Of a DNA stretch of 64,000 nt, positions 21,324 through 42,667 are shown in pieces. A model generated the notes under the pieces. The model worked only from the letters and a program-made list of their open reading frames with translations, was not told the origin of the DNA and ran no database searches. Position numbers and translations under genes: made by a program. Location: NCBI RefSeq assembly GCF_003732275.1, contig NZ_MOBM01000012.1, forward strand, positions 124,001 through 188,000, written 5' to 3'. The DNA is from Pseudomonas frederiksbergensis (GTDB lineage: Bacteria; Pseudomonadota; Gammaproteobacteria; Pseudomonadales; Pseudomonadaceae). Every line of letters begins with the position of its first letter. Position 1 is the first letter of the stretch.

Positions 21324-23318
21324 TCAGGGCTCGAGACGGCGTTGCTGGTGGATCCAGTCCACAATCTCGCCATCGGGGGTATAGCCACTGACCGTTTCGC
21401 GCAGGAGCTGGCGCACGCGGGAGTAGTCGTCCTGCTCGACCGCCAATAACAGCTCAGTCAAACGCCCCTTGAGCATGTCCCAGGGAAGATGGTCTTCGTT
21501 GGCGGTCATGATCATCGGATGTGGCGTCGCTGCGACGTTATCCCCAATCAGCAACTCTTCGTAAAGCTTCTCGCCCGGACGCAGCCCCGTGAACTCGATC
21601 GAAATATCGCCTTGGGGATTTCGCTCGGAGCGAATGCTCAAACCGGACAGGTGAATCATCTTCTCCGCCAGCTCGACAATCCTCACCGGTTCACCCATGT
21701 CCAGCACAAACACATCGCCTCCCTGCCCCATGGAACCGGCCTGAATCACCAGTTGCGCGGCTTCGGGAATGGTCATGAAGTAACGGGTGATCTTCGGGTG
21801 CGTGACCGTCAGCGGACCACCGGACTTGATCTGACTGTGAAACAACGGAATCACCGAACCGGACGACCCCAACACATTGCCAAAACGCACCATGGTGAAA
21901 CGGGTTTTGTTGACCCGGGATACATTGGCCTTGTCACCAAACAGTACAGGGGCGATTTCACGACTGAGGGCCTGAAGGGTCAACTCCGCCAAGCGCTTGG
22001 TGCTGCCCATGATGTTGGTCGGACGAACGGCTTTATCGGTGGAGATCAACACAAAGTTGGCCACCCCCGACTGCAACGCTGCCTGAGCCGTGTTCAATGT
22101 GCCGATGACATTGTTGAGCACGCCCTCAGCAATATTGTGCTCGACCATCGGCACATGCTTATAAGCGGCCGCGTGATAGACGGTATCCACGCGCCAGGTC
22201 TTCATCACATCGAGCAGTTTGTGCGGATGACGGATGGAGCCCAGGATAGGCAGCAACTTGACCGACACTGACTCACGACAGCCGCGCTGCTCCAACTCCG
22301 ACAGAATGCTGTAAAGGTTGAACTCACTGTGTTCGAACAGAATAAGCGTGGTCGGGCCAAGGGAGAAAATCTGCCGGCACAGCTCCGAACCGATCGACCC
22401 GCCAGCGCCAGTGACCATCACTGTCTTGCCTTTGATGCAGCGCTCAAGCAAATCAGCCTGGGCTGGCACAGCATCACGGCCCAGCAAGTCAGCGATATCC
22501 ACTTCCTGAATGTCTTCAACCTTTACCCGCCCGCTGGCCAGATCGGTGAAGTTCGGGACGCTTCGTACGTGAAGGGGGTAAGCCTCCAGCAGATTGAGAA
22601 TTTCCCTGCGTCGTGCACGGGTAGATGACGGCAGGGCCAGGAGGATTTCCTGTGCGCCAGTCACGTCGATCATCTGTTGGATATGTTTGGGTTTGTAGAC
22701 CTGGAGGCCTGAGATAGAGCGATCGGCGATGCTTGGGTCGTCGTCGATGAATGCCACGGGGCGCATCACTCGGCCCATGCGCAACGCAGCAACCAACTGA
22801 TTGCCTGCGACGCCTGCACCGTAGATGGCGACCTTGGTAAGGCCGTCGTCGCGGCTTGTGAACGGCACGTGCTGGGCGGTGGTGAACCAATCGCCCATGA
22901 AGTACTGGCGCATGCACAGGCGCAGACCGCCGATGATCACCATGCTCAGCCACCAATAGTTAAAGATGATGGAGCGCGGAACGACAGTTTGGTGGTTGCT
23001 GTACCAATAGACGACGACTGCAAGGATCAGCGATGACAGGCTGACCGCCTTGACGATTGCGATCAGCGCATCATTGCCGAAATAGCGCATGACGGCGCGA
23101 TACATACCAAAGCGTATGAAGAGCGGGATAGCGATAATCGGGGCGCAGGCGAAGAGCCAGAAATGGACCCTGAGCGGGTTGTACATATCGTCTATGCCGA
23201 GGCGCACGATGAAGGCCAGCCATAAAGCAACCCACACCAAAATCACATCGGTGGCGACCTGTATCAGCCTTTTTTGCCTACGAGGCAAACCCAGCAAAAC
23301 TGTCCGCACTTTATCCAT
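21324..23318 (-). CDS. wbpM: WbpM-type nucleotide-sugar 4,6-dehydratase
   Basis: A 664-residue inner-membrane enzyme. Four N-terminal helices (about 20-150), a first Rossmann motif GAGVAGNQLVAALRM near 170 and the catalytic Rossmann domain with VTGAGGSIGSEL near 305. The usual YxxxK is replaced by MGSTK, as in WbpM/FlaA1/PglF. Family role: UDP-GlcNAc to UDP-4-keto-6-deoxy-GlcNAc, the precursor of QuiNAc and FucNAc. Its position at the far end of the O-antigen locus, before comEA, is the standard Pseudomonas arrangement. Confidence 0.95.
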   Translation of the reverse strand: MDKVRTVLLGLPRRQKRLIQVATDVILVWVALWLAFIVRLGIDDMYNPLRVHFWLFACAPIIAIPLFIRFGMYRAVMRYFGNDALIAIVKAVSLSSLILAVVVYWYSNHQTVVPRSIIFNYWWLSMVIIGGLRLCMRQYFMGDWFTTAQHVPFTSRDDGLTKVAIYGAGVAGNQLVAALRMGRVMRPVAFIDDDPSIADRSISGLQVYKPKHIQQMIDVTGAQEILLALPSSTRARRREILNLLEAYPLHVRSVPNFTDLASGRVKVEDIQEVDIADLLGRDAVPAQADLLERCIKGKTVMVTGAGGSIGSELCRQIFSLGPTTLILFEHSEFNLYSILSELEQRGCRESVSVKLLPILGSIRHPHKLLDVMKTWRVDTVYHAAAYKHVPMVEHNIAEGVLNNVIGTLNTAQAALQSGVANFVLISTDKAVRPTNIMGSTKRLAELTLQALSREIAPVLFGDKANVSRVNKTRFTMVRFGNVLGSSGSVIPLFHSQIKSGGPLTVTHPKITRYFMTIPEAAQLVIQAGSMGQGGDVFVLDMGEPVRIVELAEKMIHLSGLSIRSERNPQGDISIEFTGLRPGEKLYEELLIGDNVAATPHPMIMTANEDHLPWDMLKGRLTELLLAVEQDDYSRVRQLLRETVSGYTPDGEIVDWIHQQRRLEP

Positions 23319-23655: not shown

Positions 23656-24249
23656 ATGTCCGAAAATCTTATAGCTCACTCGCAAACTGTGGATATCGAG
23701 CGCCGCAGCGCTATAAAAAGTCAGCGCCCTATTGTGATTTGGCTAACGGGCCTGAGTGGGGCTGGCAAATCATCCATTGCGAATGCCTTGGAGCTGGCAC
23801 TATGCGATGCAGGCCGTCATACCTATTTGCTTGATGGTGACAATGTTCGGCTTGGACTCTGCCAGGACTTAGGGTTTAGCGACGTCGATCGTGTTGAAAA
23901 CATACGACGTATTTCAGAAGTAGCAAAATTATTCATTGATGCGGGGCTGATCGTCATCACGGCGTTCATATCGCCATTCATACGCGACCGCGCCCTGGCC
24001 CGCGACGTGATTGGCGAAGATAGTTTCATTGAAGTTTTCATCGATACGCCGCTGAGCGAATGCGAGCGGAGAGACCCTAAAGGCCTTTATAAAAAAGCCC
24101 GAGAAGGACTGATAAAGAACTTCACAGGTATCGACTCTGGTTATGAGCCGCCATTGAATCCACACATCAGGATCAATACGTTAGAGGACGATCTTGAGAC
24201 AGCGGCACAGCGCATTATCGACTTTCTTAATAAGCAGCCGTCAAAATGA
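23656..24249 (+). CDS. cysC: Adenylylsulfate (APS) kinase
   Basis: A 197-residue stand-alone APS kinase, which phosphorylates adenylyl sulfate to PAPS. Seen: Walker A GLSGAGKSS (32-40), DGDNVRLGLC (60-69), NIRRISEVAKLF (the APS-binding helix), ITAFISPFIRDR, and the lid segment KGLYKKAREGLIKNFTGID. No cysD/cysN sulfurylase or cysH/cysG genes accompany it, so it is not part of an assimilation operon. It lies in the O-antigen locus, on the strand opposite a glycosyltransferase that carries a sulfotransferase domain, and probably feeds that enzyme. Lower GC than the flanking chromosome. The stop codon overlaps the next ATG (ATGA). Confidence 0.94.
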   Translation: MSENLIAHSQTVDIERRSAIKSQRPIVIWLTGLSGAGKSSIANALELALCDAGRHTYLLDGDNVRLGLCQDLGFSDVDRVENIRRISEVAKLFIDAGLIVITAFISPFIRDRALARDVIGEDSFIEVFIDTPLSECERRDPKGLYKKAREGLIKNFTGIDSGYEPPLNPHIRINTLEDDLETAAQRIIDFLNKQPSK

Positions 24250-25628
24250 AAACGTTAGTCATCATTGGTGCAGGGTTCAGTGGAACAGTCGCCGCCATAG
24301 AGTTTTTACGTTCTGCTCCACCCGGCGCCAGACTCATAATCATCAACAGATCTGGAGCCGTTGCACGCGGCCTGGCCTACGGCACCAACAGTTCAAAACA
24401 TCTGCTGAACGTACCCGCTGGCAATATGAGTGCATTGGCGGACAAACCTGACTCTTTCCTACAGTACTGCCAGTCTTTGTTGCCAGATACAACATCAAGC
24501 TCTTTCGTCTCCAGAAAACTATACGGAAACTATTTAGCATCACTTCTGGACAATACCGAACTCAACGCAAAAGGGAATGTTGCCATCGAGCGGATAACGG
24601 CTGAAGTCAAAAGCCTGACCCCTCATGAGCACGGGGCACATATTGAATTGTGCTCAGGCGAAAAGATATTTGCCGATCAAGTAATCTTAGCGTTTGGTCA
24701 TTTTCCACCGCGTACCCCTGCCGTACTTCAGGACTTACTCGACTCTTCCAGCTACATGGAAAACCCTTGGAACGGCCCAGTCTCTCTCCCCGAGAATCCA
24801 CACGCGTCAGTTTTGTTGATTGGGGGTGGCCTCACTGCTCTCGATGTCATTTCCAGCCTGAGACAAGTATCCAGTACCGGTCAGATTTATATGCTGTCTC
24901 GTCGTGGTCTTCTGCCATTGGCGCACCGGACGACTAAAAGTGCATCGCAAGCGCCCGCTTCATTTCACGATGAACTACTGAATGCAGCCCCCACCGCCCG
25001 GAGTTATTTACGCTCCATCAAGGCACAGATAAAGTCCAGCGCAGCATCCGGCACCAACTGGCGAGACATTATCGCGGCCGTGCGCCCTATTACATCCAGT
25101 CTGTGGAAAAGGCTTCCCGAGCATGAACGAAGCAGGTTTTTACGCCACGTACAACCTTACTGGGATGTTCATCGCCACCGAGTAGCGCCAGAGACTTACA
25201 AGCATTTCGATGAAGCGCTGAAACTTAAAAAAATCGTGCCGATAGCCGGTCGAATCAAGTCCATTGAACTCCACAATGGCAAACCACTCGTCTCCATCCA
25301 GTCACGCGGCACACAAGACGTCAAGACAATACCCGTTGACCGCATCATAAACTGCACGGGCCCTAATTCGAACCCAAACTTAATAGAAGAACCGCTGATA
25401 CAGCAGCTTATTAGCGACGATCTGATTTCTGTCGACAGCCTGGGCTTGGGGCTACTGGTGGATAATCAGTTGGCGGTCAAAAGCAAAGACGGGACCCCTT
25501 CCGAGTGGCTGAGTTATGTCGGCCCGATGCTGAAAGCCAACTACTGGGAAGCAACGGCGGTACCCGAACTACGTCTCTACGCCTCAGCACTTGCCAGAAA
25601 AATATCGAATAAATTCAGCAACCTGTAA
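24246..25628 (+). CDS. FAD/NAD(P)-binding oxidoreductase, role unknown
   Basis: A 460-residue flavoprotein-like enzyme with two dinucleotide-binding motifs, IIGAGFSGTVAA (6-17) and LLIGGGLTALD (190-200), and an N-terminal segment ARGLAYGTNSSKHLLNVPAGNMS typical of the NAD_binding_9 (FAD-NAD(P)-binding) group. A conserved INCTGPNSNPN occurs near 377. No membrane helices. The substrate cannot be deduced. It overlaps cysC by four bases and precedes the SGNH-like gene by nine, so the three form one unit; this suggests a role in making or modifying the sulfated glycan, but there is no direct evidence. Confidence 0.82.
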   Translation: MKTLVIIGAGFSGTVAAIEFLRSAPPGARLIIINRSGAVARGLAYGTNSSKHLLNVPAGNMSALADKPDSFLQYCQSLLPDTTSSSFVSRKLYGNYLASLLDNTELNAKGNVAIERITAEVKSLTPHEHGAHIELCSGEKIFADQVILAFGHFPPRTPAVLQDLLDSSSYMENPWNGPVSLPENPHASVLLIGGGLTALDVISSLRQVSSTGQIYMLSRRGLLPLAHRTTKSASQAPASFHDELLNAAPTARSYLRSIKAQIKSSAASGTNWRDIIAAVRPITSSLWKRLPEHERSRFLRHVQPYWDVHRHRVAPETYKHFDEALKLKKIVPIAGRIKSIELHNGKPLVSIQSRGTQDVKTIPVDRIINCTGPNSNPNLIEEPLIQQLISDDLISVDSLGLGLLVDNQLAVKSKDGTPSEWLSYVGPMLKANYWEATAVPELRLYASALARKISNKFSNL

Positions 25629-25637
25629 GGTCCATTT

Positions 25638-26489
25638 GTGAATAGCCCTACCGCCCCTGATACAGCAGACATCTTCGGCGGTGGGCTGCAACATCACCTC
25701 GAAGAATCAGGAACCCATCAGATAATGAAAGCTGTACTTGTACTCGGCGACTCCCACGCCTTGGTTTTCAGCTCTGAACAAATGAAAACATTGTTTCCTG
25801 AGTACTCATTTGAAGTGACGTCCGTTGGCGGTGCCACGGTCTCCGGATTAAAAAATCCAAACGCCGTCACCCAGGCAATGCCGCAATATATGTCGGCACT
25901 GGAAACAACCACGGCGAACACCGTGATCGTGATGCTTGGCGAGGTGGATACGGGCTTTGTGATTTGGTACAGAGCTCAAAAACATGGCAGCTCCGTAGAG
26001 CAGATGCTTCAACAGGCTCTCGAAAACTACCAGAAGCTCTTATTGGATGTGGCGAGCAGATTTCACGTTATATGCGTCAGCACTCCTCTTCCAACCATCC
26101 GAGACAACATGGATTGGGGGGAAGTGGCCAACCTGCGAAAAGAAGTGAAAGCGTCACTCTCGGATAGAACATTACTCACCATAAAGTTCAACAAACTCAT
26201 GGAAGCCTTTTGCATCCGAGAAGGCATAAGCCACTTGAACTACGATAGCGACTCTATGGATGAGAGCGGCACGCTGAAATCATCACTTCGCAACCCAAAC
26301 CCCAATGATCACCACTATGATCCCTCTGCCCATGCACTGATGATTGAACCCCTCCTGAGCCCGGTGCTCAATCAGTACACGAGCCTCAAGCAAAAGAGTT
26401 TCGACAATCTTGATACCGCAGATGAGCAAACACCTGAAAAGCGCTCCTTCCTTCGTAGACTATGGGTTTCACTTTTCTGCAGACAATAA
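25638..26489 (+). CDS. SGNH/GDSL-hydrolase-like protein
   Basis: A 283-residue protein that shows the SGNH block pattern: block I VLGDSHALVF with candidate Ser39, the GEVD segment (101-104) where block III usually has GxND, and DHHYDPSAH with candidate Asp228 and His232 as block V. SGNH proteins of polysaccharide loci are usually O-acetyl esterases or acyltransferases. It lacks a signal peptide, so a cytoplasmic site is likely. The start is uncertain: GTG at 25638 (TAAGG upstream) or ATG at 25725, which begins directly before block I. Third gene of the cysC unit. The call is by motif pattern only. Confidence 0.62.
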   Translation: MNSPTAPDTADIFGGGLQHHLEESGTHQIMKAVLVLGDSHALVFSSEQMKTLFPEYSFEVTSVGGATVSGLKNPNAVTQAMPQYMSALETTTANTVIVMLGEVDTGFVIWYRAQKHGSSVEQMLQQALENYQKLLLDVASRFHVICVSTPLPTIRDNMDWGEVANLRKEVKASLSDRTLLTIKFNKLMEAFCIREGISHLNYDSDSMDESGTLKSSLRNPNPNDHHYDPSAHALMIEPLLSPVLNQYTSLKQKSFDNLDTADEQTPEKRSFLRRLWVSLFCRQ

Positions 26490-27956: not shown

Positions 27957-30900
27957 TTAAATGACTGACTTTACCGACTGCATCAACTTCGCTTCGATGT
28001 CTCGTTCGAACAGACGTACATACTGAGCAGCTACAGCGTCGATTCGATAACGGCTTGAAACATCTTTCACCAATGCCAGGGCATGCTGGTGCTTATTCTT
28101 GTCGGTTGCAAAAGCGGCAATGATTTGCGCAGCTTTCTCGATCGGGATTTCCCAATCCTCCAGACAGAGCACCTCTCCAGCGACCTCATTTTCTATGGTA
28201 AGCATGTTTCTGATGTCGCCCACGTCGGAGGCGATGTACGGCTTGCCGGCAAAGAGACAGTCGACAATCGTCAGAGGAAAACTCTCGGACTTGAACTTGG
28301 TCAGCATGATGCCCATATCCGCCGCCGCATAGTGACCGACGGCGTTATCGCTGAAACCAGCCAAATAGACGAACTCAGGTACTCCAGCCTGACAGTACCC
28401 ATCGTAGACCGGTCCGTTCCCGACCAGTATCAGACGGATGTCCCGCCCCGAGATAACCCGCGCTCTCTCGACGGCCTCAATAGTTTCGTCCCATCCCTTG
28501 TCAGGAATCGCACGGCTGACACAGCACAGTACAAATGCGTCTTCGGGTATACCCAGTTGCACTCGTGGAATGGCAACAACCTTTGGAGGTTGTAATCCGT
28601 TTGGCACTTTGACAAACCGATCGGAAGGTTTGTCATACAGCGAAAAATTCGAGAAGGGAACAAGGTTCTTCTCGGCGGTATAGACCCAAGTGCTCACGCT
28701 ATTATCAGCCGTACGAAGCTGCTCCTCAGTCACGCCAAAGGCATCCTCATGCTCAATCATCCCGTGCAGGGACGCGACATGAGCACCCAACTCGGAGAAA
28801 ACATCCGGCACATGTAGCGGGTACCGCTGGATGTGCCACTGATGGGTATTGAGTGCTTCGACCCCAAAATCGCGGATGATAGTCTTCACTGCATCTACTT
28901 CCGAGGTTTCGACAAGCGGAACATCGGTCCTGAGCATGTTGCGAATACCCTCTTCACGCAAGGTCAAGCCCGCACTCAGCAAGAATACAGAAAGCCCTTG
29001 ACGCTTGAACTCGTTGGCCAACCGGATAGGAAGGATCTCGGCTCCACCAGGATAGAAACCGATCGTCGAAACCATAACATTCGGCTTTCGGTTTGCGCGG
29101 GCCTGCAGGATCGCGTCTTTATCGTACCAACGCAGAAACTCTTCGTTAGAATTCCCAACATAGTGGTCGTAAAGTCTTTTACTCCCCTCTTCACAGCGCT
29201 CAAGAACAGAAAGCGGCACGTTATACAGCGCCTGTACGGTCTGACTCGAGATCCCGAGTTCACGGTAGAAAATCTCTTTCCTGTAGGTACTCTCGGCAGC
29301 GCTGCCTTCATAACGGCGGAAGAAGTTTGTCCCTTCAGTGGAGTAGGCAATCTTGCCACCCCGAAGAATGTGAAGGTAGAAAACCCAGTCGCCTGCAACA
29401 CGCATCGACAACCAGGATTCGTCTTCCAGCAGAGGTAGATTGGTAGGACGCTTGAAAATCGTGCCGCTGGCGTTAGGAATCGTGTTCTTGATGCCCAGCC
29501 CCGTGCGCACTTCGTTGTGAGCGGTTTCTACGTAGGAACTTCTCCACTTTTCAGCGCATTCCAGATCGTAAACATACCTATGGAACTCATCCTCCATGAC
29601 GACTTCGTCACTGCTGACAAACTCGCATTTTGAATAAGCAAGCATTACGGCTTCATCTTCAAAACAACGGACAAGTGCTTCCAGAAAGTGCTCATCACAG
29701 TAGTCATCGCTTTCAGCAACCCAGACCAGATCCCCGGTCGCTGCCTTGATGCCCTTGGCCCACTGACGGAAAACACCACCCGAATTGGTCTCGTTGAACA
29801 ACTTCACCGTCACGTCAGGGAAGTCGGCCGCGTATTGACTCAGTACCGCGCGACTTTGATCGGACGAACAGTCATCCATCAAAATGACTTCAATATTCTT
29901 GTACGTCTGCCCGTAGATGCTATCCAATCGACGAGGCAGGAAACGCTCGTGATTGTAGTTCGGCACAATGACCGACACTTTGGGCATGATCGTATTTGAT
30001 TTGATATCCAGCAGTGCGCGAGTCGTTTCATTCACACGACCGAAGCCGCCCACTCGATCAGGCTCAAGGAAAAGGCCCTGCGTCCAATCGTTCCAGGCGT
30101 TCACGAACACAAGACGACGATCTTCAGCGTGGGTAGCCCTTGCACCGGCAATCGCCGCATCAAGCCAGCGACGATATTCTCTGGCGTTAAAACGCGTATA
30201 AACGAGCGGAGAATTTGGTTTCAGTGCGGTTTCATCGCGTCCAAGCGTAATGGCGTGAAAGACCGGACTGGATTGAAGTTGAGTACTTTGCGCCCGCAAC
30301 ACGCCTTGCGAAGCAACGACGGAATACGGAACGGCAGCAATACCATTCTTCTCCTGAGGTACAAAGACGCCTGTTTCTCCTGGCACGGGAGCGGCAGGAA
30401 GATCAAGGACGGCATCACACAGACTTACCAGAGTCTTGTCCAGCTCCCCCGCACCTGCTTGCGACAACTGACCGATCAGATAAACACTGATGCCAAGGTC
30501 GAACAGTTGACTGCGCAGCTGACGAAGCGCATCCGCATCTGTCTGTACGTTGCCAGGTATCCCGACCACAACCACGGAACGACCGTCGATTTGCATGCAC
30601 CGCTTATCCGACACCGCAGGCAACAGCGCGGCGGCCAAAGACCCTTGAAGACCTTTAGGATGCAAATCTGTCTGGGCGCAGAACGTGAAGTCGATGCCTG
30701 GATGCGCGATAAACACATCCAGCGGCTGGACCGATTGAACTGCATTGGTGTCAACATTCAGCTTAAAGCAGAAGCCATACACGCCATGACGCTTTGCAAG
30801 CTGCGCCTGTTTGTCCAGAACCTCCCAGTCCAGCGGATCGTAGAAACCAAACTCCTCATGAGGAACCAGCAGTTGCGAGTTGCCTTTAGACGCCGGCTTG

Positions 30901-33278
30901 GCGCTACGCAACGCATCCCACGCAGGAGACGTATAAAATGCGAGCAGTTTGATGTCGCTAGTCACTTCGCCAAATCGAATGTCTTTTTCATAACGAACGA
31001 CCGCGTCAGGCACTGCGATCCGCTGCTCCGACGCACCGGCGACAACGTAGTGCCATAACGGGTTGACCCCGGCACTGCTGATATCTTTATAGGTGTTCAG
31101 GTACGAAAGGGTATCGAAGTCAGGAGAAGGATTTCGGCCGTCGAACCAACCCTCTTCGCAATAGTGTCTGATCGGATCGATAGAAGCATCGAGCTCGGTG
31201 TACATCGCAAAATAGAACGACTCATCGAAAAGCCCGGACTTTCTGATCACGTCGACCTGCGCGTCAACTACAGCCTTGGGAACAGGTATGCGCACGGGTT
31301 GTTCGACTGCTTTCGGCTCAAGTGCCACAACAGATTGCGCGTGTGGCGCACTCGACTTCACTACTTTGGGAGCAGAATGGGAGGCGATCGAACGCCCTTC
31401 CACTTGACCGCACCTGAGATAGTGGACCAGCGGATTCACTCGCGCAGCGGCAACATCCGGGTTATCGAAAAGATACTTCGAGGTACTGAACAGGGCAGAA
31501 GGATTACGGTTTTCCCTCCATCCATGAAGCATATAATGCTTGAGCGGATCGATGCCTTGATCTCGAACGTCAGGGTTGCTGGTCAGATAGTAATCTGCAT
31601 CAAACAGAAAGCTATCGCGCACCAGTTGGACTGTTGCCTTGTTAAAGAAATCGCGTCGAACCCTCAAGACTTCAATGATCTTGCCCAGTGAAGGAACGCT
31701 CATCGGCCGTACGGCCCGACGGGCAATGCGACCGACCCCGCGCAAAGGCGAAGTGACGCGCCAGGAGCGGGAACCCAGAAGCTGATTGAGTTCCTGCTTC
31801 AACGAATGAACATCGGTTTCTTTTTCCAGCACGATGCGCACGATTTCGTTTTTCAGGTTCCCAATTTCACCTTCACGCTCGATGATGATGTGTTTGAGGT
31901 TGGTGACCTGCCCATCACGCTCGCCGACGACATGATTGAGATGGGAAATCTGCCCTTCGCGCTCAACCACCGCGCGATTGAGAACGTCAACGTTTTGGGT
32001 TTGACTGTTAATCGCGCCTTCGTGTTCGATAATGGCACCTTTGAAGGCACCCAGTTGAGCTTCAAGCTCCACGACAGTATGCCGGAGACTGGCGATCTGA
32101 CCTTCTCGCTCGACAACACTTTGTGTCAGGCCGGCGATTTGCCCATCACGTTCAATAAGTGTGTGGCTAAGGTTTGCGATCTTCTCGTCATACTCAACAA
32201 CACTGGCGTTGAGGTTCAGATGGTCGACCTGCCCCTCCAGATCGACCACGCTGTGGTTGAGTTGAGCAATCTCAGTCTCACGCTCGACAACCAGATGACT
32301 GAGACGGGTGATCTGCACATCACGCTCGCTCATGGCAAGGTTGAGACTCGCGATTTGCGCCTCAAGCCCCGCGACAGTTTGTGTCAGAGTGGAAATCTGA
32401 AGCGTGCGCTCTCCCAGGCGTTGATGACGCCCTCGAATCAGCTTGATTGCCCGCAGTGCCAACTCCAGTTCTTGCTCGGAGAAGTGCTCTTTTGACTGCG
32501 GCAGCTGCGTGTCATACCCAAAAACATCAAAGTCTTCAGCATACAAAGTCCGGATCAAACTTGCGCTGCGCTCTGTCACGAACTCTGGCAGGTAGGGAAT
32601 CAGACTCTCGTTCGCTCGACGCTCGGCAAAAGGATCGGGAACATACTCACCCAAGCGCTCCGACAGCGCTTTACTAAGCTGTTCCGAGTCTTCGATCTTG
32701 ACCAGTTTGGAGTAGTTGATCAAATCCGGCCTAAGCAGGACGGCTTGCGGCGTCCAGTGCTGATCCCAATAAGAAGGGGCCTCCTGACTGGCGAGATGCT
32801 CCAGAAAACCTTCAAAGGCCAACGCGATGTCATCTGCATTTCTTAACGGTTGATGAAAGAAATCCCGCTGAAGATAAGGCCCAATCTGCTGCGGCTCTTG
32901 CAACAGCAATTTTGATTGCCAAGCCGAAAAAATTCGCTTGTAAGGGTTTCTGACGACAGCAAATCGGAAGTAAGAATCGGAGGTCAGCGCCTCAGAAAGC
33001 TCTTCTGAAGAAAGACCGGTAAGGTGTGGTGCCACTTTATGCAACTCATGAACAACCTGATCCGGATTACTTTCTGCACTATCAGTGATATTGCTCAATG
33101 CTTTCGAGCAGCCCTCTAAAGAAGCAAACCACCATTTGAGAGATGTGCATGCAACTTTTGGCGTACTAACGTAGAACAGCTTGTACTGCTCCGAACGATA
33201 GCTATTCCACTGGAGATAGTTGAATACTTTCTTTTCGTCGCTCGGCGGCCAATCACTAATATTTAGCATATACGTCAA
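27957..33278 (-). CDS. Giant sulfotransferase-coiled coil-glycosyltransferase fusion, 1773 residues
   Basis: Domains in order. About 30-255: carbohydrate sulfotransferase of the Sulfotransfer_2 type, with the 5'-phosphosulfate motif STPKVACTSLKWW (Lys41) and the 3'-phosphate motif RNPYKRIFSAW (Arg110, Ser118). 293-500: coiled coil of about twelve 14-residue repeats (for example GQIASLRHTVVELE). 555-750: two repeats like FDADYYLTSNPDV...DPLKHYMLHGW, common in large glycosyltransferases. 775-1090: GH99-like/WbsX region ending NAWNDWTQGLFLEPD. 1099-1330: GT2 (VSVIVPNYNHERFL, ESDDY). 1400-1770: GT4 (FYPGGAEILPIRLANEF, VPNGL, ESFPLTIVDCLFAGKP). It probably polymerises and sulfates the glycan exported by the adjacent Wzm/Wzt. 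It lies 148 bases after wzt. Confidence 0.87.
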   Translation of the reverse strand: MTYMLNISDWPPSDEKKVFNYLQWNSYRSEQYKLFYVSTPKVACTSLKWWFASLEGCSKALSNITDSAESNPDQVVHELHKVAPHLTGLSSEELSEALTSDSYFRFAVVRNPYKRIFSAWQSKLLLQEPQQIGPYLQRDFFHQPLRNADDIALAFEGFLEHLASQEAPSYWDQHWTPQAVLLRPDLINYSKLVKIEDSEQLSKALSERLGEYVPDPFAERRANESLIPYLPEFVTERSASLIRTLYAEDFDVFGYDTQLPQSKEHFSEQELELALRAIKLIRGRHQRLGERTLQISTLTQTVAGLEAQIASLNLAMSERDVQITRLSHLVVERETEIAQLNHSVVDLEGQVDHLNLNASVVEYDEKIANLSHTLIERDGQIAGLTQSVVEREGQIASLRHTVVELEAQLGAFKGAIIEHEGAINSQTQNVDVLNRAVVEREGQISHLNHVVGERDGQVTNLKHIIIEREGEIGNLKNEIVRIVLEKETDVHSLKQELNQLLGSRSWRVTSPLRGVGRIARRAVRPMSVPSLGKIIEVLRVRRDFFNKATVQLVRDSFLFDADYYLTSNPDVRDQGIDPLKHYMLHGWRENRNPSALFSTSKYLFDNPDVAAARVNPLVHYLRCGQVEGRSIASHSAPKVVKSSAPHAQSVVALEPKAVEQPVRIPVPKAVVDAQVDVIRKSGLFDESFYFAMYTELDASIDPIRHYCEEGWFDGRNPSPDFDTLSYLNTYKDISSAGVNPLWHYVVAGASEQRIAVPDAVVRYEKDIRFGEVTSDIKLLAFYTSPAWDALRSAKPASKGNSQLLVPHEEFGFYDPLDWEVLDKQAQLAKRHGVYGFCFKLNVDTNAVQSVQPLDVFIAHPGIDFTFCAQTDLHPKGLQGSLAAALLPAVSDKRCMQIDGRSVVVVGIPGNVQTDADALRQLRSQLFDLGISVYLIGQLSQAGAGELDKTLVSLCDAVLDLPAAPVPGETGVFVPQEKNGIAAVPYSVVASQGVLRAQSTQLQSSPVFHAITLGRDETALKPNSPLVYTRFNAREYRRWLDAAIAGARATHAEDRRLVFVNAWNDWTQGLFLEPDRVGGFGRVNETTRALLDIKSNTIMPKVSVIVPNYNHERFLPRRLDSIYGQTYKNIEVILMDDCSSDQSRAVLSQYAADFPDVTVKLFNETNSGGVFRQWAKGIKAATGDLVWVAESDDYCDEHFLEALVRCFEDEAVMLAYSKCEFVSSDEVVMEDEFHRYVYDLECAEKWRSSYVETAHNEVRTGLGIKNTIPNASGTIFKRPTNLPLLEDESWLSMRVAGDWVFYLHILRGGKIAYSTEGTNFFRRYEGSAAESTYRKEIFYRELGISSQTVQALYNVPLSVLERCEEGSKRLYDHYVGNSNEEFLRWYDKDAILQARANRKPNVMVSTIGFYPGGAEILPIRLANEFKRQGLSVFLLSAGLTLREEGIRNMLRTDVPLVETSEVDAVKTIIRDFGVEALNTHQWHIQRYPLHVPDVFSELGAHVASLHGMIEHEDAFGVTEEQLRTADNSVSTWVYTAEKNLVPFSNFSLYDKPSDRFVKVPNGLQPPKVVAIPRVQLGIPEDAFVLCCVSRAIPDKGWDETIEAVERARVISGRDIRLILVGNGPVYDGYCQAGVPEFVYLAGFSDNAVGHYAAADMGIMLTKFKSESFPLTIVDCLFAGKPYIASDVGDIRNMLTIENEVAGEVLCLEDWEIPIEKAAQIIAAFATDKNKHQHALALVKDVSSRYRIDAVAAQYVRLFERDIEAKLMQSVKSVI
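31839..32402 (-). repeat. 14-residue tandem repeat region (coiled coil) within the giant glycosyltransferase
   Basis: Residues 293-480 are built of 14-residue units of the form (G/A)QI-x-x-L-x-x-x-V-V-E-R-E, for example VQITRLSHLVVERE, GQIAGLTQSVVERE, GQISHLNHVVGERD and GQVTNLKHIIIERE. Two units are longer (16 and 21 residues), which shifts the register. Fourteen residues equal two heptads, so this should form a long rod. Confidence 0.88.
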
Positions 33279-33426: not shown

Positions 33427-34797
33427 CTAAATCGTGGTTTTTCGGCCAATTTCCGACTGAGGCGCGCTCGACATCAAGTCCACATACCCAAATGAATTCA
33501 ACTTTTCACCCGGAATTACCCGAAACATGATTGCGTCCATGATGCGGTGGGCACAGCTCGGTTCCTGGGTCGACCAAACGCCGCCACCGACAAAATAGAC
33601 ACCTGGCAGTAAATGCATCCGGAACGAAAATTTCACGTTGAAGGTGTTACCGGCACTGACGCGTTCAAAGTACGTACCGTCTTCGGGAAACCGCTGACCT
33701 GTAATAACGGCTCCAGAGACGTTACGAATGTGTATCCCCCAATAAGTACCAGCGAAGTCCTCCATGAAGTGGCCCGCCACTTCGATCTGATACGTTTTAC
33801 CAGCCTGCAGCACATTTACCACATGCCCATCCGCATCCAGGATGGAGATCTTCTTGATCTCGGCACCCTGGGTTGGATAGATCGCGGTGGTTTCCGGAAC
33901 AAGTCCCGAATCAAATGCATCGCTGGGGGCGTGCTTTGTCTCGACGGGCAACAACGCGACCTTATCGGTATCGACAGCCCCCCCCGAGCGATCTGCTGTG
34001 GTGTACAGCTCAACGAGTCGTTTGTACTCTGCTTCCGGTGCATAGATGAGTTTCTGGTAAGCACGCACGGCTTCTGGAGCAGCGCCGTACATGAGCCGGA
34101 CACCATGATCGAGCAGCAACGTTCTGTCGCACAGTTCAATGATGCTGGGCGCCGAGTGCGACACGAAGAGAATCGAAGTACCGTTGCGCTTCAGCTCTTC
34201 CATACGAGCAAAGCACTTACGCTGAAACTTCTCATCGCCGACTGCGAGTGCTTCATCGACAATAAAAATATCCGGATCAATCATCGCTTGAACGGCAAAC
34301 GCCAAACGAACGACCATCCCGCTGGAATAGCTTTTTACCGGTTGTTCAATAAAATCACCGATGTCAGCAAAGGCAGCAATTTCATCGAAACGCTGGTCGA
34401 TTTCTTCCCTTGCCAAACCAAGTACTGCGGCGTTCATGTACACGTTATCGCGCCCGGTGAACTCAGGGTCGAAGCCTGAGCCCAACTCCAGCAACGCAGC
34501 AATGCGACCGTTGGTCTGGACGCTGCCAGTGGTCGGGTTCAACGTACCGCAAATCATCTGCAGCAGAGTGGATTTACCACTGCCGTTACACCCGATGATC
34601 CCGACCGTTTCGCCCTTTTTCACTTCGAAAGAAACATCCTTCAAAGCCCAGAACTCGCGATAGAACTGACTGGACTGCATGCGCAAAGCGCCCTGCATGC
34701 GAGGCACGATAAACTGCTTCAACCGGTCACGGGGCTGATCATAGATTTCGTAGCACTTGCTAAGGTTCTCGACCTTGATAGCGACTTCAGAGGACAT
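33427..34797 (-). CDS. wzt: Polysaccharide ABC exporter ATPase, first system (Wzt-like)
   Basis: A 456-residue ATPase. Nucleotide-binding domain 1-245 with Walker A GCNGSGKST (69-77), signature YSSGM (157-161) and Walker B IFIVDEAL (177-184). A further 210 residues follow, including a beta-rich region (GTYWGIHIRNVSGAVITGQR, LLPGVYFVGGGVWS) that matches the carbohydrate-binding C-terminal domain of Wzt proteins, which in E. coli O8/O9a recognise the modified end of the glycan before export. Start: ATG at 34797, overlapping the permease end by 11 bases, with AAGGG upstream. Confidence 0.93.
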   Translation of the reverse strand: MSSEVAIKVENLSKCYEIYDQPRDRLKQFIVPRMQGALRMQSSQFYREFWALKDVSFEVKKGETVGIIGCNGSGKSTLLQMICGTLNPTTGSVQTNGRIAALLELGSGFDPEFTGRDNVYMNAAVLGLAREEIDQRFDEIAAFADIGDFIEQPVKSYSSGMVVRLAFAVQAMIDPDIFIVDEALAVGDEKFQRKCFARMEELKRNGTSILFVSHSAPSIIELCDRTLLLDHGVRLMYGAAPEAVRAYQKLIYAPEAEYKRLVELYTTADRSGGAVDTDKVALLPVETKHAPSDAFDSGLVPETTAIYPTQGAEIKKISILDADGHVVNVLQAGKTYQIEVAGHFMEDFAGTYWGIHIRNVSGAVITGQRFPEDGTYFERVSAGNTFNVKFSFRMHLLPGVYFVGGGVWSTQEPSCAHRIMDAIMFRVIPGEKLNSFGYVDLMSSAPQSEIGRKTTI

Positions 34798-35605
34798 CAG
34801 CAAATCCCTTACGTGTTTTCTGGAACCAGGCAAAACCCAACCAAGCGATGCAGGTGGTGACTACCCAATAGATTCCCAATATTTCAAAGTCCGGAAGTTT
34901 TCCCCAGAAAAGAACATCGCGCGCCATCTCAATCGCAGGTGTCAGCGGGTTGAGGTAGAGCAAATGGCGATACGCCTCGGGCAGTGCCGTCGCGGGGTAG
35001 AAAATAGGGCTCAAGAACATCAGAACTGTGGTCAGAATACCGATAAATTGTGAAACGTCGCGCAGGTACACACCCAACGAGGCCAATGCCCAGCTAACCC
35101 CCATAATGAACATGATGAAAGGGATGACGATCAGTGGCAGGTAGAAGGCTGTAGCGTGCGGCATTCCGAAAAATATTCCGTAAGCGGCAAACCATACGCC
35201 CAAGCTAATGGCGGCATGGAACAACGCAGACCCCAATACCACGACGGGCAGAATTTCGAGGGGATACACCACTTTCTTGACAAAATTGACCTTGCCAAGA
35301 ATGAGACCGGGGGCTCGGTTAATACACTCGGCAAACAGGTTGAAAATGATCAATCCCGCAAACAGGATCAGTGCGAATTCGGTTTTCGAATCACTGTCTA
35401 CGCTCCACCGGGCCCGGAGTACCGCGCTGAACACAAAGGTGTATACCGCAAGCATCAGTAGTGGATTGAAAAACGACCAAAGCAGGCCCATGGCCGAACC
35501 ACGATACCGACCTAGGACCTCCCGGATCGTCGACGCTTTGATTAACGCTGTGTTACGCCACAGGCTGGCGAACATTTCCAAAGGATTGGCAGAAAACTGG
35601 CGCAT
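34787..35605 (-). CDS. wzm: Polysaccharide ABC exporter permease, first system (Wzm-like)
   Basis: A 272-residue ABC-2 permease with six predicted membrane helices; the N-terminal interfacial region (ASTIREVLGRYRGSAMGLLWSFFNPLLMLAVYTFVFS) and the end WFQKTRKGFADVL are typical of Wzm/KpsM-type O-antigen and teichoic acid exporters. It moves lipid-linked glycan across the inner membrane with the Wzt ATPase whose gene overlaps its 3' end. Its ATG shares bases with the stop of a 57-codon frame upstream (TGATG), suggesting translational coupling. Confidence 0.93.
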   Translation of the reverse strand: MRQFSANPLEMFASLWRNTALIKASTIREVLGRYRGSAMGLLWSFFNPLLMLAVYTFVFSAVLRARWSVDSDSKTEFALILFAGLIIFNLFAECINRAPGLILGKVNFVKKVVYPLEILPVVVLGSALFHAAISLGVWFAAYGIFFGMPHATAFYLPLIVIPFIMFIMGVSWALASLGVYLRDVSQFIGILTTVLMFLSPIFYPATALPEAYRHLLYLNPLTPAIEMARDVLFWGKLPDFEILGIYWVVTTCIAWLGFAWFQKTRKGFADVL

Positions 35606-36507: not shown

Positions 36508-39500
36508 CTAAATATAACCCTCACAAGACTTCACCGCCCGGTTCTTGGCAATAAAGTAGGCTTCATGCAGTTGTTTATGCCTACTCAGCCTTACTTTTGG
36601 ATCCGCAGGCGTCCTGAACAACGATGTCGTTTTGGGCACGTAACAGAACTCATTTTTATACCCATAACGCAACCAAAGATTCCAATCCTCGAGGTTACTC
36701 ATATCGGTCTCGAAACCGCCCCGCTTCAGATATAGGTCTCTCTTGAAAAGAAGGGACTGTATGGGGATGAAGTTATGATCAAGCAGCACATTGTAATCGT
36801 ATTCATGCTTGAAGGAATCGTGAGTCTCATGACTGACTTCCGTATACCGCCCATTCGTATTGTCAGTGACTGTGCCGACCTCCATTGCCAACGAGTAAGC
36901 CGCAACGGCGGTGTCATTCTTCAGCAACGCCGCAACAAGGACCTCGACGTGATCCGAAAAAAGCAAATCGTCGTCGTCAAGAAACATACAGTATTTGCCT
37001 TTGGCGACCTCAAGACCGTAGTTGCCTGTCACCGAACGTCCTACTTTCTCCAGACCATAGAAGCTGACGCTTCGCCCTTCTGCGGACGGTACCTCAGAAA
37101 CGAGAGCTTTCATCGTCGAGCCACCGTCCTCGACCACAATTAACTCAATATTGCGGTACGTTTGGTTGAACACAGACATGATGGACTGCCTCAGGAACTC
37201 GTCCCTCTTCTGATAGGTACGAGTCACGATGGTGACCAAAGGCTGTTCAACGAAGGGGTCACCCACGCGCCAGAAAGCACCGTCTCTGATCATTTCATAA
37301 TCAAAGCCCCTGAAAGGAAAATAAGCATCCTTATCCGGACCTTTACCACCGAGAAAATAAGACGCTTTCTTTGTGAGCTGAGCAATATTACGCATCAGAT
37401 CCCGGCGAGAGCCTGGGTATGCTTGTGGCCGCATAAACAGTAAGAACTGTAGAACGATACCGCCCCACTTATCGGTCAGCCTACCATAACGCAATCTAAT
37501 ATAAGCATTGGCCAAAGTGCTGCCGGCATACTGAATCGGCTTCACATGATTCTCATGCTCATAGGTGTAATGGTAAACGACTGCTGAAGGGCAATATTTC
37601 AGACGATAGCAATAAGATCTAAACCGATAAGAAAGCTCGACATCTTCTCCATACATGAATATCTGGCTTTCATACCCGCCGACCTTAACGTAGGCAGACC
37701 GCCTGATTAAAATGCACGCATGTGAAGACCAATTGGTTTCCAGCGTCACCGGATCATAATACTTCGGATGCTCATATGGGGCCTGCCTCAACTCCCAGGA
37801 TGCGACATTTTCCTGACCGTCTGACAAAGCGCTGGAAACTATCTTCTCAATGGAGTTATCCGCGAAAGTAATATCAATATTACTGACCAAAAAATACTCT
37901 GCATCGCCTTGCCCGATAGCCCTATCATGGCCCGCACCAAAACCTACGTTATCTCCCCGCAAAACCTCAAAGCCGGCCAACTCCGCACCCAGCGTTACTT
38001 TCCAGCGCTCCAGTGCTTCGACTGTGCTATCGCTAGAGCCATTATCGACAAAATAGAGGTTCAACTTTCCAAGGGGATAGCTTTGAGATTGCAGTGACTC
38101 AAAAAAACCATCGACCCACTTGACGCTATTATAGGTAACGATTGAAACATCAACGACAGGTTGAGCAGAGACTGTCGGCGCTACCAAAACATGAGAAAAA
38201 CGACGATCCGTAATGACCTGTATCGCCTTGATATTATCTTTTGAATATATAACGGAAAGAAGCTTCACACGTAATGATTTCGAGTAAAGACCTATCCGAA
38301 CACGAATACTCGCCAAAAAAGGAAACTTCTGATAAAGCGGCCGAAGGACCGACTTCGGACTCGACACAAGTCGACGCAGCCCCGCGAAGCAGCGCTTTAC
38401 AAATGATATTATGGAATGCCCCATACCGAATACTTCATCCTTTAAAAACGAATTTTTTTCTTCTGAATTCCCAAACTTTGAACCCGTCACCTGCAAGGCA
38501 TCAAGTTGCGCCTCGACTTCAAAAAGCTGGTCCTTCACCTGAAAGAGCTCTTCATTCAACAATGCCAGATCGGCATTAATTTCTTTATTCTTTGATTCAA
38601 GCCATGAAATATAAGATTGTTGGCGATAACTTTCCAAATCAGGATCGAAGCGGTTTCTTTCAAAACCCGGTTCACTGGCATGCCCCAGTCGAGCAAGATG
38701 AGCTGACGGCTCGCAGAACTGAGCAGCAGAAAGAAAGTACTGCGTCTCGGCAAAGTCCAGAATGAAAGCTCTGAGCGCTGACGAACACACACTATCTGTT
38801 TGGTGAGCTTGCCAAACAGACATCAAATCTGCGGGCTCCCGAACATCGATAGTCAACCCCAACCCTGAATAGGGAGCCAGTCCCAGGACGTAAACAGGTT
38901 TGCCGGCCAGAGCGGCCTCAAAACCGGCGGAGGAGTTGAGGGTAAAGACAACATCCGCGGCGGCGATCAAATCAGAAATATTATCCTCTTTGCCGGCGAC
39001 GAAGACATGTTCCGGCAGCGGTGGGATAGAGTCCAACGGATGCGGTTTGACGATGATTTTTAAGCCTGATCCCGAGATAACATCCGATACATGCTGAACA
39101 TAATCAGCCATGCTCGAATAGGGAGACCCCATGATTACATTGGAGTCATCCTGAACCTGCAGCAGAACCAAAGCATTGGGTTCCCTGACGCCACCCTGGT
39201 ACTTATAACGGTCCTCCAGTGCCCTTAACCGGTCAACACATCCACTATTGTCGTAGGTCTGCACCCTCTCCAGATAGGCAGCAAACTCCGCCCTGAAGGC
39301 ACTTCGAGCATTCACGCCCTGCGGATCCGAGTAGTAACCCATGGCATTAGGTTCTCGTAACATGCCCAGCTCATTAAAAATCAGAGGAATCGTATGAGAT
39401 GAACAAATCCTGTCCAGCGAACCGTCGTAATTCCAACAAAAAACGAGATCTGGATCTAGCTCACTTACCATGCGGCGAACAAAATCGTCGTGATAAGAAA

Positions 39501-40239: not shown

Positions 40240-40243
40240 AGCG

Positions 40244-42291: not shown

Positions 42292-42667
42292 CAAACTATT
42301 CCTTCGAGATAGACACCCAACAAGGTCATCAGCCAACAATCGAAAGGCCTACAGACAGTCAGCAGCCTTCTGTTTCCTTTAATCCGTGATTCAGAGAAAC
42401 GACCAGGCTTGACACTCGACCGTTATCCCTCTTCCCTGCACAACTGAGCGGGACACCCTATCACTGTAGCCCGAAAAATCAGAATCTTATCCGCAGGGTA
42501 GGCCTACATCGGCCAAGCGCCCCCGCTCATGCCTCCAACTCATAAGCCCTCCTCACCTGGGAGATCTGTTTCGTTAGGATACGGACTTTTAATGGGCGAA
42601 ATATGTAAGAATTCTGAAAAGGTCGTAAGAAAAGTCCTAGAAAAATCGACCTGCAAAACAGCAGACA
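42292..42667. other. Leader region of the second exporter module
   Basis: 376 bases between wbpL and the second permease. Probably carries a promoter for the permease-ATPase-glycosyltransferase unit. It also holds an 18-codon frame (42487-42543, minus strand) with a very strong ribosome site, GAGGAGG six bases before its ATG, reading MSWRHERGRLADVGLPCG. No other gene is visible. Confidence 0.45.

What the first reader, a model, noticed from the sequence alone, without database searches (positions are those of the whole stretch)
27957..33278. Sulfotransferase fused to an O-antigen glycosyltransferase, with a private PAPS kinase gene nearby
Seen: residues 30-255 of the 1773-residue protein carry the two PAPS-binding motifs of carbohydrate sulfotransferases (STPKVACTSLKWW, RNPYKRIFSAW), and the locus holds a stand-alone cysC (23656-24249) without cysDN. 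Known: CysC makes PAPS, the donor of Sulfotransfer_2 enzymes, and such enzymes sulfate sugars. Inference: the O-polysaccharide of this strain is sulfated, which is rare for bacterial LPS outside rhizobia and some marine bacteria. I know of no described Pseudomonas O-antigen built by such a fused enzyme.
Basis: partly seen in the sequence, partly recalled or inferred. Interest (0 to 1): 0.82.

Follow-up and report, generated by a model that had tools for sequence, protein, structure and literature searches.

The report
Sulfotransferase end-capper for bacterial surface sugars
A giant bacterial enzyme that builds surface sugar chains carries a sulfate-adding head on a long coiled rod, and related gene clusters suggest that the sulfate marks the finished chain end for export, a kind of end-cap that the papers searched do not describe.

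Summary
In detail: a minus-strand protein of about 1770 residues (27957-33269) has an N-terminal Sulfotransfer_2 domain with intact PAPS motifs, then a coiled coil, then WbsX, GT2 and GT4-type modules; cysC lies 3.7 kb from its 3' end. Relatives change the reading. Next to wzm-wzt the N-terminal slot is exchangeable: Sulfotransfer_2, other sulfotransferases, methyltransferases or DUF4915, mostly followed by a coil. This is the layout of WbdD/WbbB chain terminators with a molecular ruler. The exporter Wzt1 has the cap-binding domain, with Arg where A. aeolicus Wzt has the Trp that stacks on a methyl cap. Over 78 Wzt loci, Arg occurs in 22 of 23 with a sulfotransferase in the next two genes and 13 of 55 others; relatedness weakens this. 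An E. coli conjugative plasmid carries the cassette with cysDN, an SLC13 permease and cysC. Most likely the enzyme adds a terminal sulfate that ends the chain and licenses export. Against: six relatives keep the fused enzyme without a cap-binding Wzt or linked cysC; structure predictions failed; no chemistry exists. New variant of a known kind.

The parts
27957..33269 (-).
32511..33197 (-). Sulfotransfer_2 domain (residues 28-256), proposed chain-terminating (capping) module
   Evidence: E 1.7e-23; PAPS motif columns invariant in 11 aligned relatives
31824..32456 (-). Coiled coil (about residues 275-485), 14-residue periodicity; proposed molecular ruler
   Evidence: own heptad score; lag-14 identity 0.27, highest of 500 shuffles 0.15; model helices 268-352 and 360-502; pLDDT mostly 60-80 beyond residue 300, below 50 before it and around 350-370
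31740..31763 (-). WRVTSPLR motif after the coil, shared by cap-slot proteins of several chemistries
   Evidence: 22 of 65 cap-slot genes against 6 of 766 other ORFs of at least 330 aa
30042..30920 (-). WbsX glycosyltransferase domain (residues 787-1079)
29637..29975 (-). GT2 domain (residues 1102-1214)
28170..28535 (-). GT4/GT1-type glycosyltransferase domain (residues 1582-1703)
33427..34833 (-). Wzt1, ABC exporter ATPase with C-terminal cap-binding domain (Wzt_C, residues 319-453)
33544..33546 (-). Codon of Wzt1 Arg430, at the column of A. aeolicus Wzt Trp362 (methyl-cap stacking residue)
34787..35605 (-). Wzm1, ABC exporter permease (96-97% identical in L035 and L058-L060)
23656..24249 (+). 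cysC, APS kinase (PAPS synthesis)
24246..25628 (+). FAD-NAD(P)-binding protein (PF13454) overlapping cysC; adjacent to cysC in many related loci
25638..26489 (+). SGNH-like protein (by eye; no Pfam match); a relative lies between wzt and the sulfotransferase gene in L055 and L057
26664..27698 (-). NAD-dependent sugar epimerase family protein, conserved near the fused gene
21324..23318 (-). WbpM-like protein (Polysacc_synt_2; gene name recalled)
36508..40251 (-). Second large multidomain protein (hexapeptide transferase, capsule-synthesis-type domain, GT2 domains); its C-terminal half is shared with sulfotransferase loci
40244..42339 (-). Second Wzt/Wzm pair (Wzt2 with its own C-terminal domain; Gln at the Trp362 column in my alignment)
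42668..43687 (-). WbpL-like initiating glycosyltransferase (Glycos_transf_4; gene name recalled)

Best explanation
The protein is a single-chain polymerase plus chain terminator for an ABC-transporter-dependent O-polysaccharide. Its C-terminal glycosyltransferase modules extend the lipid-linked chain. Its N-terminal sulfotransferase, held away from them by a coiled-coil ruler, transfers sulfate from PAPS (made with the help of the neighbouring CysC) to the non-reducing end once the chain is long enough. The sulfate stops growth, and the C-terminal domain of Wzt1 recognises it, through a pocket with Arg430 where methyl-cap transporters have Trp, so that only capped chains are exported. Shown: domains, gene order, exchangeability of the N-terminal module, the pocket residue. 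Inferred: sulfation itself, its place at the chain end, the ruler function, cap recognition.
For: (1) Slot exchange: relatives with the same WbsX-GT2-GT4 array carry Methyltransf_11/24 or DUF4915 instead of the sulfotransferase. Five Pseudomonas loci have a separate sulfotransferase protein with a coil-like C-terminal part beside Wzm-Wzt. (2) Layout equals that of known terminators: PMC11231755 says that the terminating enzyme sits at the distal end of a coiled coil and calls the coil a marker of the strategy. (3) Wzt1 has the cap-binding domain. At nucleotide-domain identity 68-74%, cap-domain identity is 46-55% between sulfotransferase loci (36 pairs) and 26-31% between these and other loci (20 pairs). 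(4) Trp362 of A. aeolicus Wzt, which stacks on the methyl cap (PMC9445017 passages), aligns with Arg430. Arg is in 22 of 23 loci with a sulfotransferase in the next two genes and 13 of 55 without. PDB chain 2r5o_A (by recall E. coli O9a Wzt, methylphosphate cap) also has Arg there. (5) PAPS supply: genus association 93/99 vs 103/299; plasmid cassette with cysDN, SLC13 permease, cysC. (6) 14-residue coil periodicity; on the plasmid a 42-bp repeat of 13.8 copies.
Against: The six 1661-residue-class loci (L044-L049) have an intact-looking sulfotransferase; in five the Wzt nearby is 264 aa without cap domain (L045: none in that stretch; the same contig, L090, has a 264-aa Wzt and a 121-aa remnant of a cap domain), and none has linked cysC. 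Those six genomes have no Wzt_C match. L085 has a sulfotransferase next to a Wzt with Trp; L155 has Arg but a methyltransferase gene; L086 has a cap domain 59% identical to Wzt1's but no Sulfotransfer_2 in the locus. Of eight loci with other sulfotransferase families after wzt, one (L087, picked for it) has cysC in the stretch. Only 4 independent pairs on the nucleotide-domain tree: 0-2 agree, none opposes, cannot reach significance. A whole sulfate-activation set seems lavish for one sulfate per chain. Structure models failed. In A. salmonicida, with a sulfotransferase gene after wzt, the authors report no such residue in the O-antigen structure.
Confidence: 0.58

Rival explanations
1. The sulfotransferase decorates internal residues: each repeat unit is sulfated during polymerisation, so the O-chain is a polyanion as in sulfated marine polysaccharides.
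For: Dedicated PAPS supply (cysC; cysDN and an SLC13 permease on the E. coli plasmid) suggests a high flux of sulfate; sulfated marine capsular polysaccharides with biosynthesis gene clusters are in print (titles and abstract starts only). The 1661-class keeps the domain without a cap-recognising transporter.
Against: The domain sits in a slot that methyltransferases also occupy, at the far end of a coiled coil, and goes with a particular type of transporter cap domain.
Confidence: 0.21
2. The export mark is made by another enzyme of the locus (for example the second large protein with its hexapeptide transferase domain and its own Wzt2), and the sulfate is accessory.
For: The window holds two Wzm-Wzt pairs, each with a C-terminal Wzt domain and a neighbouring large protein. 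L056 (by eye) and L086 (Methyltransf_24 at 26.4 bits, cut-off 26.3) have methyltransferase-like genes directly after wzt.
Against: The nearest relatives (L035, L058-L060) show the same sulfotransferase cassette next to Wzm1-Wzt1, and Wzt1 has Arg430 while Wzt2 does not.
Confidence: 0.11
3. The sulfotransferase domain is a relic or structural piece and the polysaccharide is not sulfated; cysC serves something else.
For: No activity or structure was obtained here; strong APS kinases also occur in many genomes without Sulfotransfer_2 (103 of 299); the A. salmonicida O-antigen is reported without sulfate despite a sulfotransferase gene.
Against: PAPS-binding motif columns are invariant over 11 sequences; linkage with cysC in gamma- and betaproteobacteria and on a plasmid.
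Confidence: 0.08

Closest known systems
WbdD (E. coli O9a / K. pneumoniae O3)
   Same: N-terminal cap enzyme, coiled-coil ruler, system with a Wzt that carries a cap-binding domain. The separate sulfotransferase-coil proteins L036-L040 match this layout best (PMC11231755, introduction and discussion read in part).
   Different: Cap enzyme is a PAPS sulfotransferase instead of a kinase-methyltransferase; in the window the polymerase modules are fused to it.
WbbB (K. pneumoniae O12) and ORF6 of K. pneumoniae O7
   Same: One polypeptide with N-terminal terminator, coiled coil and C-terminal polymerase glycosyltransferases.
   Different: Those cap with Kdo or methylphosphate; the glycosyltransferases here are WbsX, GT2 and GT4-type.
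Aquifex aeolicus Wzm-Wzt with methyl-cap-binding domain
   Same: Same transporter architecture and cap-binding domain (PMC9445017 passages; alignment).
   Different: Trp362, which stacks on the methyl group, is Arg in the window Wzt1.
Aeromonas salmonicida wbsalmo cluster, ORF19
   Same: A sulfotransferase-domain gene directly after wzt and before a WbbB-like gene (PMC4483657 passages).
   Different: 216-residue separate protein; no function assigned by the authors, who know of no such residue in the O-antigen structure.
Short Sulfotransfer_2 genes beside cysC in Pseudomonas (about 240 aa)
   Same: Same Pfam family, cysC match about 90-100 bases from the sulfotransferase match (for example G175, G355).
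   Different: Too short for a coiled coil plus glycosyltransferases; function not studied here.

Membership tests
PAPS-dependent sulfotransferase, Sulfotransfer_2 (PF03567) | Profile match over curated cut-off along the whole domain | tested here: met
   84.5 bits against 22, profile 5-252 of 252
PAPS-dependent sulfotransferase, Sulfotransfer_2 (PF03567) | Conserved 5'-phosphosulfate and 3'-phosphate binding motifs (motif roles recalled) | tested here: met
   T-P-K-V-A and R-N-P-Y columns invariant in 11 sequences
PAPS-dependent sulfotransferase, Sulfotransfer_2 (PF03567) | Sulfotransferase fold | tested here: inconclusive
   Models at mean pLDDT 50.3 and 38.5 from 8- and 6-row alignments; no PDB sequence match for the single sequence, none credible for the profile
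PAPS-dependent sulfotransferase, Sulfotransfer_2 (PF03567) | Transfers sulfate from PAPS | not testable with these tools
   Needs an enzyme assay
Coiled-coil chain terminator of ABC-dependent O-antigens (WbdD/WbbB type) | Coiled coil separating cap enzyme from polymerase modules | tested here: met
   Own heptad score, 210 residues; 14-residue periodicity; long helices in an otherwise poor model
Coiled-coil chain terminator of ABC-dependent O-antigens (WbdD/WbbB type) | Encoded with Wzm-Wzt whose Wzt has a C-terminal cap-binding domain | tested here: met
   Wzt_C E 3.4e-24 in Wzt1; a related domain in L035-L040, L055-L060, L065. Not met in the 1661-class L044-L049
Coiled-coil chain terminator of ABC-dependent O-antigens (WbdD/WbbB type) | Cap added at the non-reducing end and needed for export | not testable with these tools
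   Needs LPS chemistry and mutants
Coiled-coil chain terminator of ABC-dependent O-antigens (WbdD/WbbB type) | Coil length sets chain length | not testable with these tools
   Coil length differs between near relatives (post-coil motif at residue 506 in the window, 382 in L058-L060), but no chain lengths are known
Methyl-cap-recognising Wzt domain (A. aeolicus type) | Trp at position 362 of A. aeolicus Wzt | tested here: not met
   Arg430 in Wzt1; column identified through chain 8dku_A

The most novel reading that the evidence does not exclude
Sulfate is a further class of chemical end-cap for ABC-exported O-antigens, beside methyl or (methyl)phosphate groups and Kdo. Different sulfotransferase families (Sulfotransfer_2, _3-like, _1), and perhaps DUF4915 as an unrecognised sulfotransferase, have been plugged into the same coiled-coil terminator slot, and Wzt transporters switched one pocket residue from Trp to Arg to read an anionic cap. 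The cassette, with its own sulfate import and activation genes and a ruler made of 42-bp repeats, also sits on a conjugative plasmid.
Probability: 0.38. Interest if true: 0.88.

Novelty: new variant of a known kind. Interest (0 to 1): 0.73.

Why it matters
If true, it adds sulfate to the short list of O-antigen end-caps (PMC9445017 names methyl, (methyl)phosphate and sugars such as Kdo). It offers a one-residue sequence signature (Trp or Arg at the A. aeolicus 362 column) that might predict cap chemistry from genomes. It would explain why cysC sits in several O-antigen loci, and it makes the question of how Wzt reads caps directly testable with an isolated domain and a sulfated sugar. One sulfate per chain could be missed in routine analysis of O-antigen repeats, so such caps may have been overlooked (inference).

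Tried and rejected
Structure prediction of residues 1-530 (8 rows) and of the domain alone (268 residues, 6 rows) gave unusable sulfotransferase models, so no fold search was made. PDB sequence searches with the domain, alone and as profile, found nothing credible.

Rejected: 'cysC is the strain's only PAPS kinase' (one search shows two more full-length domains). Rejected: 'the cap domain always goes with Sulfotransfer_2' (L086 is a counter-example). Tested and weak: the phylogenetically independent version of the Arg association (4 pairs on supported branches). The 27-cluster version at 45% cap-domain identity (the only threshold tried) gives Arg in 5 of 5 sulfotransferase clusters and 6 of 22 others, Fisher p 0.006.

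Sampling, bias and dropped rows: searches took 41 of the 100 places listed (mostly the top-scoring) and 19 places, whose 60 genomes had been chosen because they carry Sulfotransfer_2. L085-L088 and L091 were picked because an APS kinase or a sulfotransferase lay near a Wzt_C match, so their cysC linkage is no independent evidence. The 78 Wzt rows leave out Wzt frames over 560 aa (L127, L179 and one of L167), loci where no Wzt frame passed my filter (L132, L137, L154, L160, L162, L163, L169, L180), L068 and the 264-aa Wzt of L044-L049 and L090. In some G+C-rich loci (L127, L144) the next ORF chosen by my script may be a wrong frame.

How sulfotransferases were called: a profile from A4; a profile built from L087, L145, L149, L171 and L157 themselves (they match it by construction); single sequences of L131, L143, L166 and L085. 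Pfam support: L083/L131 Sulfotransfer_1 63.6 bits (cut-off 22); L166 Sulfotransfer_3 60.7 (27); L080/L149 Sulfotransfer_3 29.4 (27); L145 Sulfotransfer_1 24.3 (22); L085 Sulfotransfer_2 39 (22); L087 and L171 only below the cut-offs; L143 no match and L157 not scanned, both called by the P-loop motif. DUF4915 rows were called with a profile of four of them. My heptad score is weak in L037 and L039 (29 residues each) although their sequences look coil-like; it is weak (31 and 30 residues) in L063 and L067 and absent after the N-terminal domain in L066. The cysC column misses L055, where one search finds cysC.

Literature: nine text searches. No paper holds both 'sulfotransferase' and 'WbdD'; four hold 'sulfotransferase' and 'Wzt'; of these I looked at passages of PMC4483657 only. 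'sulf' occurs 0 times in the held main text of PMC11231755 and PMC9445017. Other papers named in the searches were seen as listings. Subscription papers and preprints were not searched.
Full report
WHAT IS THERE. The reported ORF is real, on the minus strand (the plus strand is interrupted by stops). Its nearest relatives begin at the ATG that corresponds to 33269, so the protein is probably 1770 residues. Pfam gives, from the N-terminus: Sulfotransfer_2 (28-256, E 1.7e-23), WbsX (787-1079), GT2 (1102-1214) and a GT4/GT1-type domain (1582-1703). Between sulfotransferase and WbsX lies a coiled coil of about 210 residues by my own heptad score, with 14-residue periodicity (identity 0.27 at lag 14; highest of 500 shuffles 0.15). 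cysC (23656-24249, +) is a clear APS kinase (E 1.8e-66), followed by a PF13454 protein and an SGNH-like protein. Directly upstream of the fused gene lie wzt and wzm (33427-35605), and Wzt1 has the C-terminal Wzt_C domain. Farther out are a wbpM-like gene, a sugar epimerase, a second wzm-wzt pair with a second large multidomain protein, a wbpL-like gene and rml-like genes (gene names recalled). This looks like an O-antigen locus of the ABC-transporter type.

IN OTHER GENOMES. Sulfotransfer_2 occurs in 99 of 398 Pseudomonas genomes; most copies are short, and 17 of the 99 genomes carry the domain in a frame of about 400 residues or more. A genome scan with the whole protein gave 18 loci. Full-length relatives occur in Pseudomonas (L055, L058-L060), Uliginosibacterium (L056), Paraburkholderia (L057) and Mesorhizobium (L065; there the last module is in a separate frame). 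The order wzm - wzt - [sulfotransferase, coil, WbsX, GT2, GT4] - epimerase is kept, with an extra small gene after wzt in L055-L057 and L065 and an extra glycosyltransferase gene before the epimerase in L055, L056 and L065. cysC is found in the fetched flanks of L035, L055, L057, L058-L060 but not of L056, L065 or the six loci L044-L049 of a 1661-residue class. Across the genus, 93 of 99 genomes with Sulfotransfer_2 have an APS kinase at E<=1e-54, against 103 of 299 without (Fisher p 1e-27, species not independent). Five of the six exceptions (G135, G178, G228, G237, G337) are genomes of the 1661-residue class.

THE SLOT IS EXCHANGEABLE. In relatives that keep the WbsX-GT2-GT4 array but lack Sulfotransfer_2, the N-terminus is Methyltransf_11 (L061, L064, L067), Methyltransf_24 (L062) or DUF4915 (L063, L066), followed by a coil by my score in five of these six, short in two; a seventh, L068, has no extra N-terminal domain and is not beside wzm-wzt. 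Five Pseudomonas loci (L036-L040) have instead a separate 453-618-residue protein after Wzt, with the sulfotransferase and a coil-like C-terminal part (score strong in three of five), the layout of WbdD. By the terminator model (PMC11231755, introduction and discussion read in part) the cap enzyme sits at the distal end of a coiled coil that acts as ruler, the coil marks the strategy, and only capped chains are exported because a domain on Wzt binds the cap. After the coil, a WR..(P/S)(L/M)R motif occurs in 22 of 65 cap-slot genes, of methyltransferase, sulfotransferase and DUF4915 types, and in 6 of 766 other ORFs.

THE TRANSPORTER GOES WITH THE CAP ENZYME. At nucleotide-domain identity 68-74%, the C-terminal domains of Wzt from sulfotransferase loci are 46-55% identical to each other (36 pairs) and 26-31% identical to those of other loci (20 pairs) (pairs are not independent, and the sulfotransferase rows form one side of a branch). 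I then searched 398 Pseudomonadota genomes with a profile of the sulfotransferase-type C-terminal domain: 12 hits including the window. The next genes of the other 11: L080 (Sulfotransfer_3) and L083 (Sulfotransfer_1) by Pfam; L077 (same gene as L145, weak Sulfotransfer_3 and _1 matches); L076 and L079 by the P-loop motif read by eye; in L081/L157 a sulfotransferase, called by motif, is the second gene after a methyltransferase-like one; L074 and L084 are methyltransferases; L075, L078 (contig end) and L082 (GT8-like) gave no sulfotransferase. Among these hits as kept in the final table, 5 of 10 have a sulfotransferase in the first two genes; of 24 other loci taken from the phylum sample, 0 by the same profiles (profiles built on some of the positives).

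ONE POCKET RESIDUE. In A. aeolicus Wzt, Trp362 stacks on the methyl cap, and replacing it essentially abolishes LPS binding (PMC9445017 passages). The corresponding residue of chain 8dku_A (Trp363 in that construct; His355 of the paper is shifted by the same one) aligns with the Trp of the methyltransferase-type Wzt L067, which is the column of Arg430 in the window Wzt1. Over 78 Wzt loci: with a sulfotransferase in the first two downstream genes, Arg 22 and not Arg 1 (L085, Trp); without, Arg 13 and not Arg 42 (Fisher 1.9e-9, rows related). The 13 are five DUF4915 loci (L063, L066, L086, L088, L091); L146, L147 and L168 (L147 is a Methyltransf_12-type protein, and its Wzt domain matches 2r5o_A, by recall the E. 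coli O9a methylphosphate-cap transporter, which has Arg at the column); L158 (contig end); L175 (pyruvyltransferase-like by eye); L151; L152; and L155 (methyltransferase). Arg may be the mark of an anionic cap. Caution: on the nucleotide-domain tree there are only 4 independent contrasts on supported branches (0-2 agree, none opposes), too few for significance; at 27 clusters p is 0.006.

PAPS GENES BY LOCUS. cysC or cysNC lies in the fetched stretch of 13 of 23 sulfotransferase rows (14 with L055), 5 of 5 DUF4915 rows and 2 of 50 other rows (L043 and the window's own Wzt2, both with a sulfotransferase elsewhere in the locus). But L085, L087, L086, L088 and L091 had been picked for such neighbours, and of the eight loci with other sulfotransferase families only L087 has one; so this linkage is firm only for the Sulfotransfer_2 group and, unpicked, for the DUF4915 loci L063 and L066.

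A PLASMID VERSION WITH ITS OWN SULFATE PATHWAY. The conjugative E. coli plasmid pKTa005_1 (NZ_CP147085.1, river water, Japan) carries rfbBDAC, a GT2 gene, wzm, wzt, the fused protein (sulfotransferase 63% identical), a glycosyltransferase, the epimerase, cysD, cysN, an SLC13-family permease and cysC in one run. Its Wzt has Arg at the column. Its coil is encoded by a 42-bp tandem repeat, 13.8 copies, 91% matches: a ruler that could change length by repeat gain or loss (inference). This record alone matches it closely, in 5426 complete E. coli genomes and in 72,556 plasmid records.

HOW IT PROBABLY WORKS. The glycosyltransferase modules polymerise the lipid-linked chain; the sulfotransferase at the far end of the coil sulfates the non-reducing end with PAPS when the chain reaches it; sulfation ends growth; the Wzt1 C-terminal domain binds the sulfated end and export follows. 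Sulfation, its position, and recognition are inferred.

AGAINST. The 1661-class has the sulfotransferase, a shorter coil, no linked cysC, a 264-residue Wzt without cap domain, and no Wzt_C anywhere in the six genomes. G228 shows a 121-residue remnant of a Wzt cap domain beside a second sulfotransferase protein. L086 breaks the rule that the cap domain follows Sulfotransfer_2. The dedicated sulfate pathway is more than one sulfate per chain would seem to need. A. salmonicida has a sulfotransferase gene after wzt, but the authors report no such residue in the O-antigen structure; a single terminal sulfate could have been missed, which is conjecture. Neither structure prediction was usable.

NOVELTY. 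In the papers I could search, O-antigen caps are listed as methyl, (methyl)phosphate and sugars such as Kdo (PMC9445017); no text with both 'sulfotransferase' and 'WbdD' is held. I file this as a new variant of a known kind: a terminator-ruler system with a new cap chemistry.

Noticed in passing
window 36508-42339: A second Wzm-Wzt pair in the same locus, next to a large protein that begins with a hexapeptide transferase domain; Wzt2 has Gln at the Trp362 column. Possibly a second export system with another (acyl?) end-cap; in L058-L060 the related protein has only the C-terminal half.
   Followed up: partly
L063, L066, L088, L091, L086: DUF4915 (PF16261, or its profile) takes the cap slot or the gene after it, with Arg in the Wzt pocket (5 of 5) and cysC or cysNC in the locus (5 of 5, three of them picked for it): a candidate unrecognised sulfotransferase or anionic-cap enzyme.
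   Followed up: partly
window 24246-25628; L035-L040, L054, L055, L058-L060, L086-L088: A PF13454 FAD-NAD(P)-binding protein lies directly beside cysC (or cysNC) in many of these loci, also in L054, where Sulfotransfer_2 was not found; its role is unknown.
   Followed up: no
L184 14939-15517 (plasmid NZ_CP147085.1): The coiled coil of the plasmid-borne relative is a 42-bp tandem repeat of 13.8 copies, a coding repeat that could vary the ruler length.
   Followed up: partly
L090 6936-7301 and 3141-6899 (G228): A 121-aa remnant of a Wzt cap-binding domain just upstream of a second sulfotransferase-coil protein (1252 aa): perhaps a decayed second O-antigen module.
   Followed up: partly
e.g. L051 (G175): Many Pseudomonas genomes carry a short (about 240 aa) Sulfotransfer_2 gene; in those compared by eye cysC lies about 90-100 bases away. 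Target unknown.
   Followed up: no
L166 (G013): Two sulfotransferase-type genes in a row directly after wzt (239 and 507 aa).
   Followed up: no
L175, L177, L178, L181: The gene after wzt looks like a polysaccharide pyruvyltransferase (by eye, family recalled), which suggests pyruvate as yet another cap; Arg at the column in L175, Glu in my alignment for the others.
   Followed up: no
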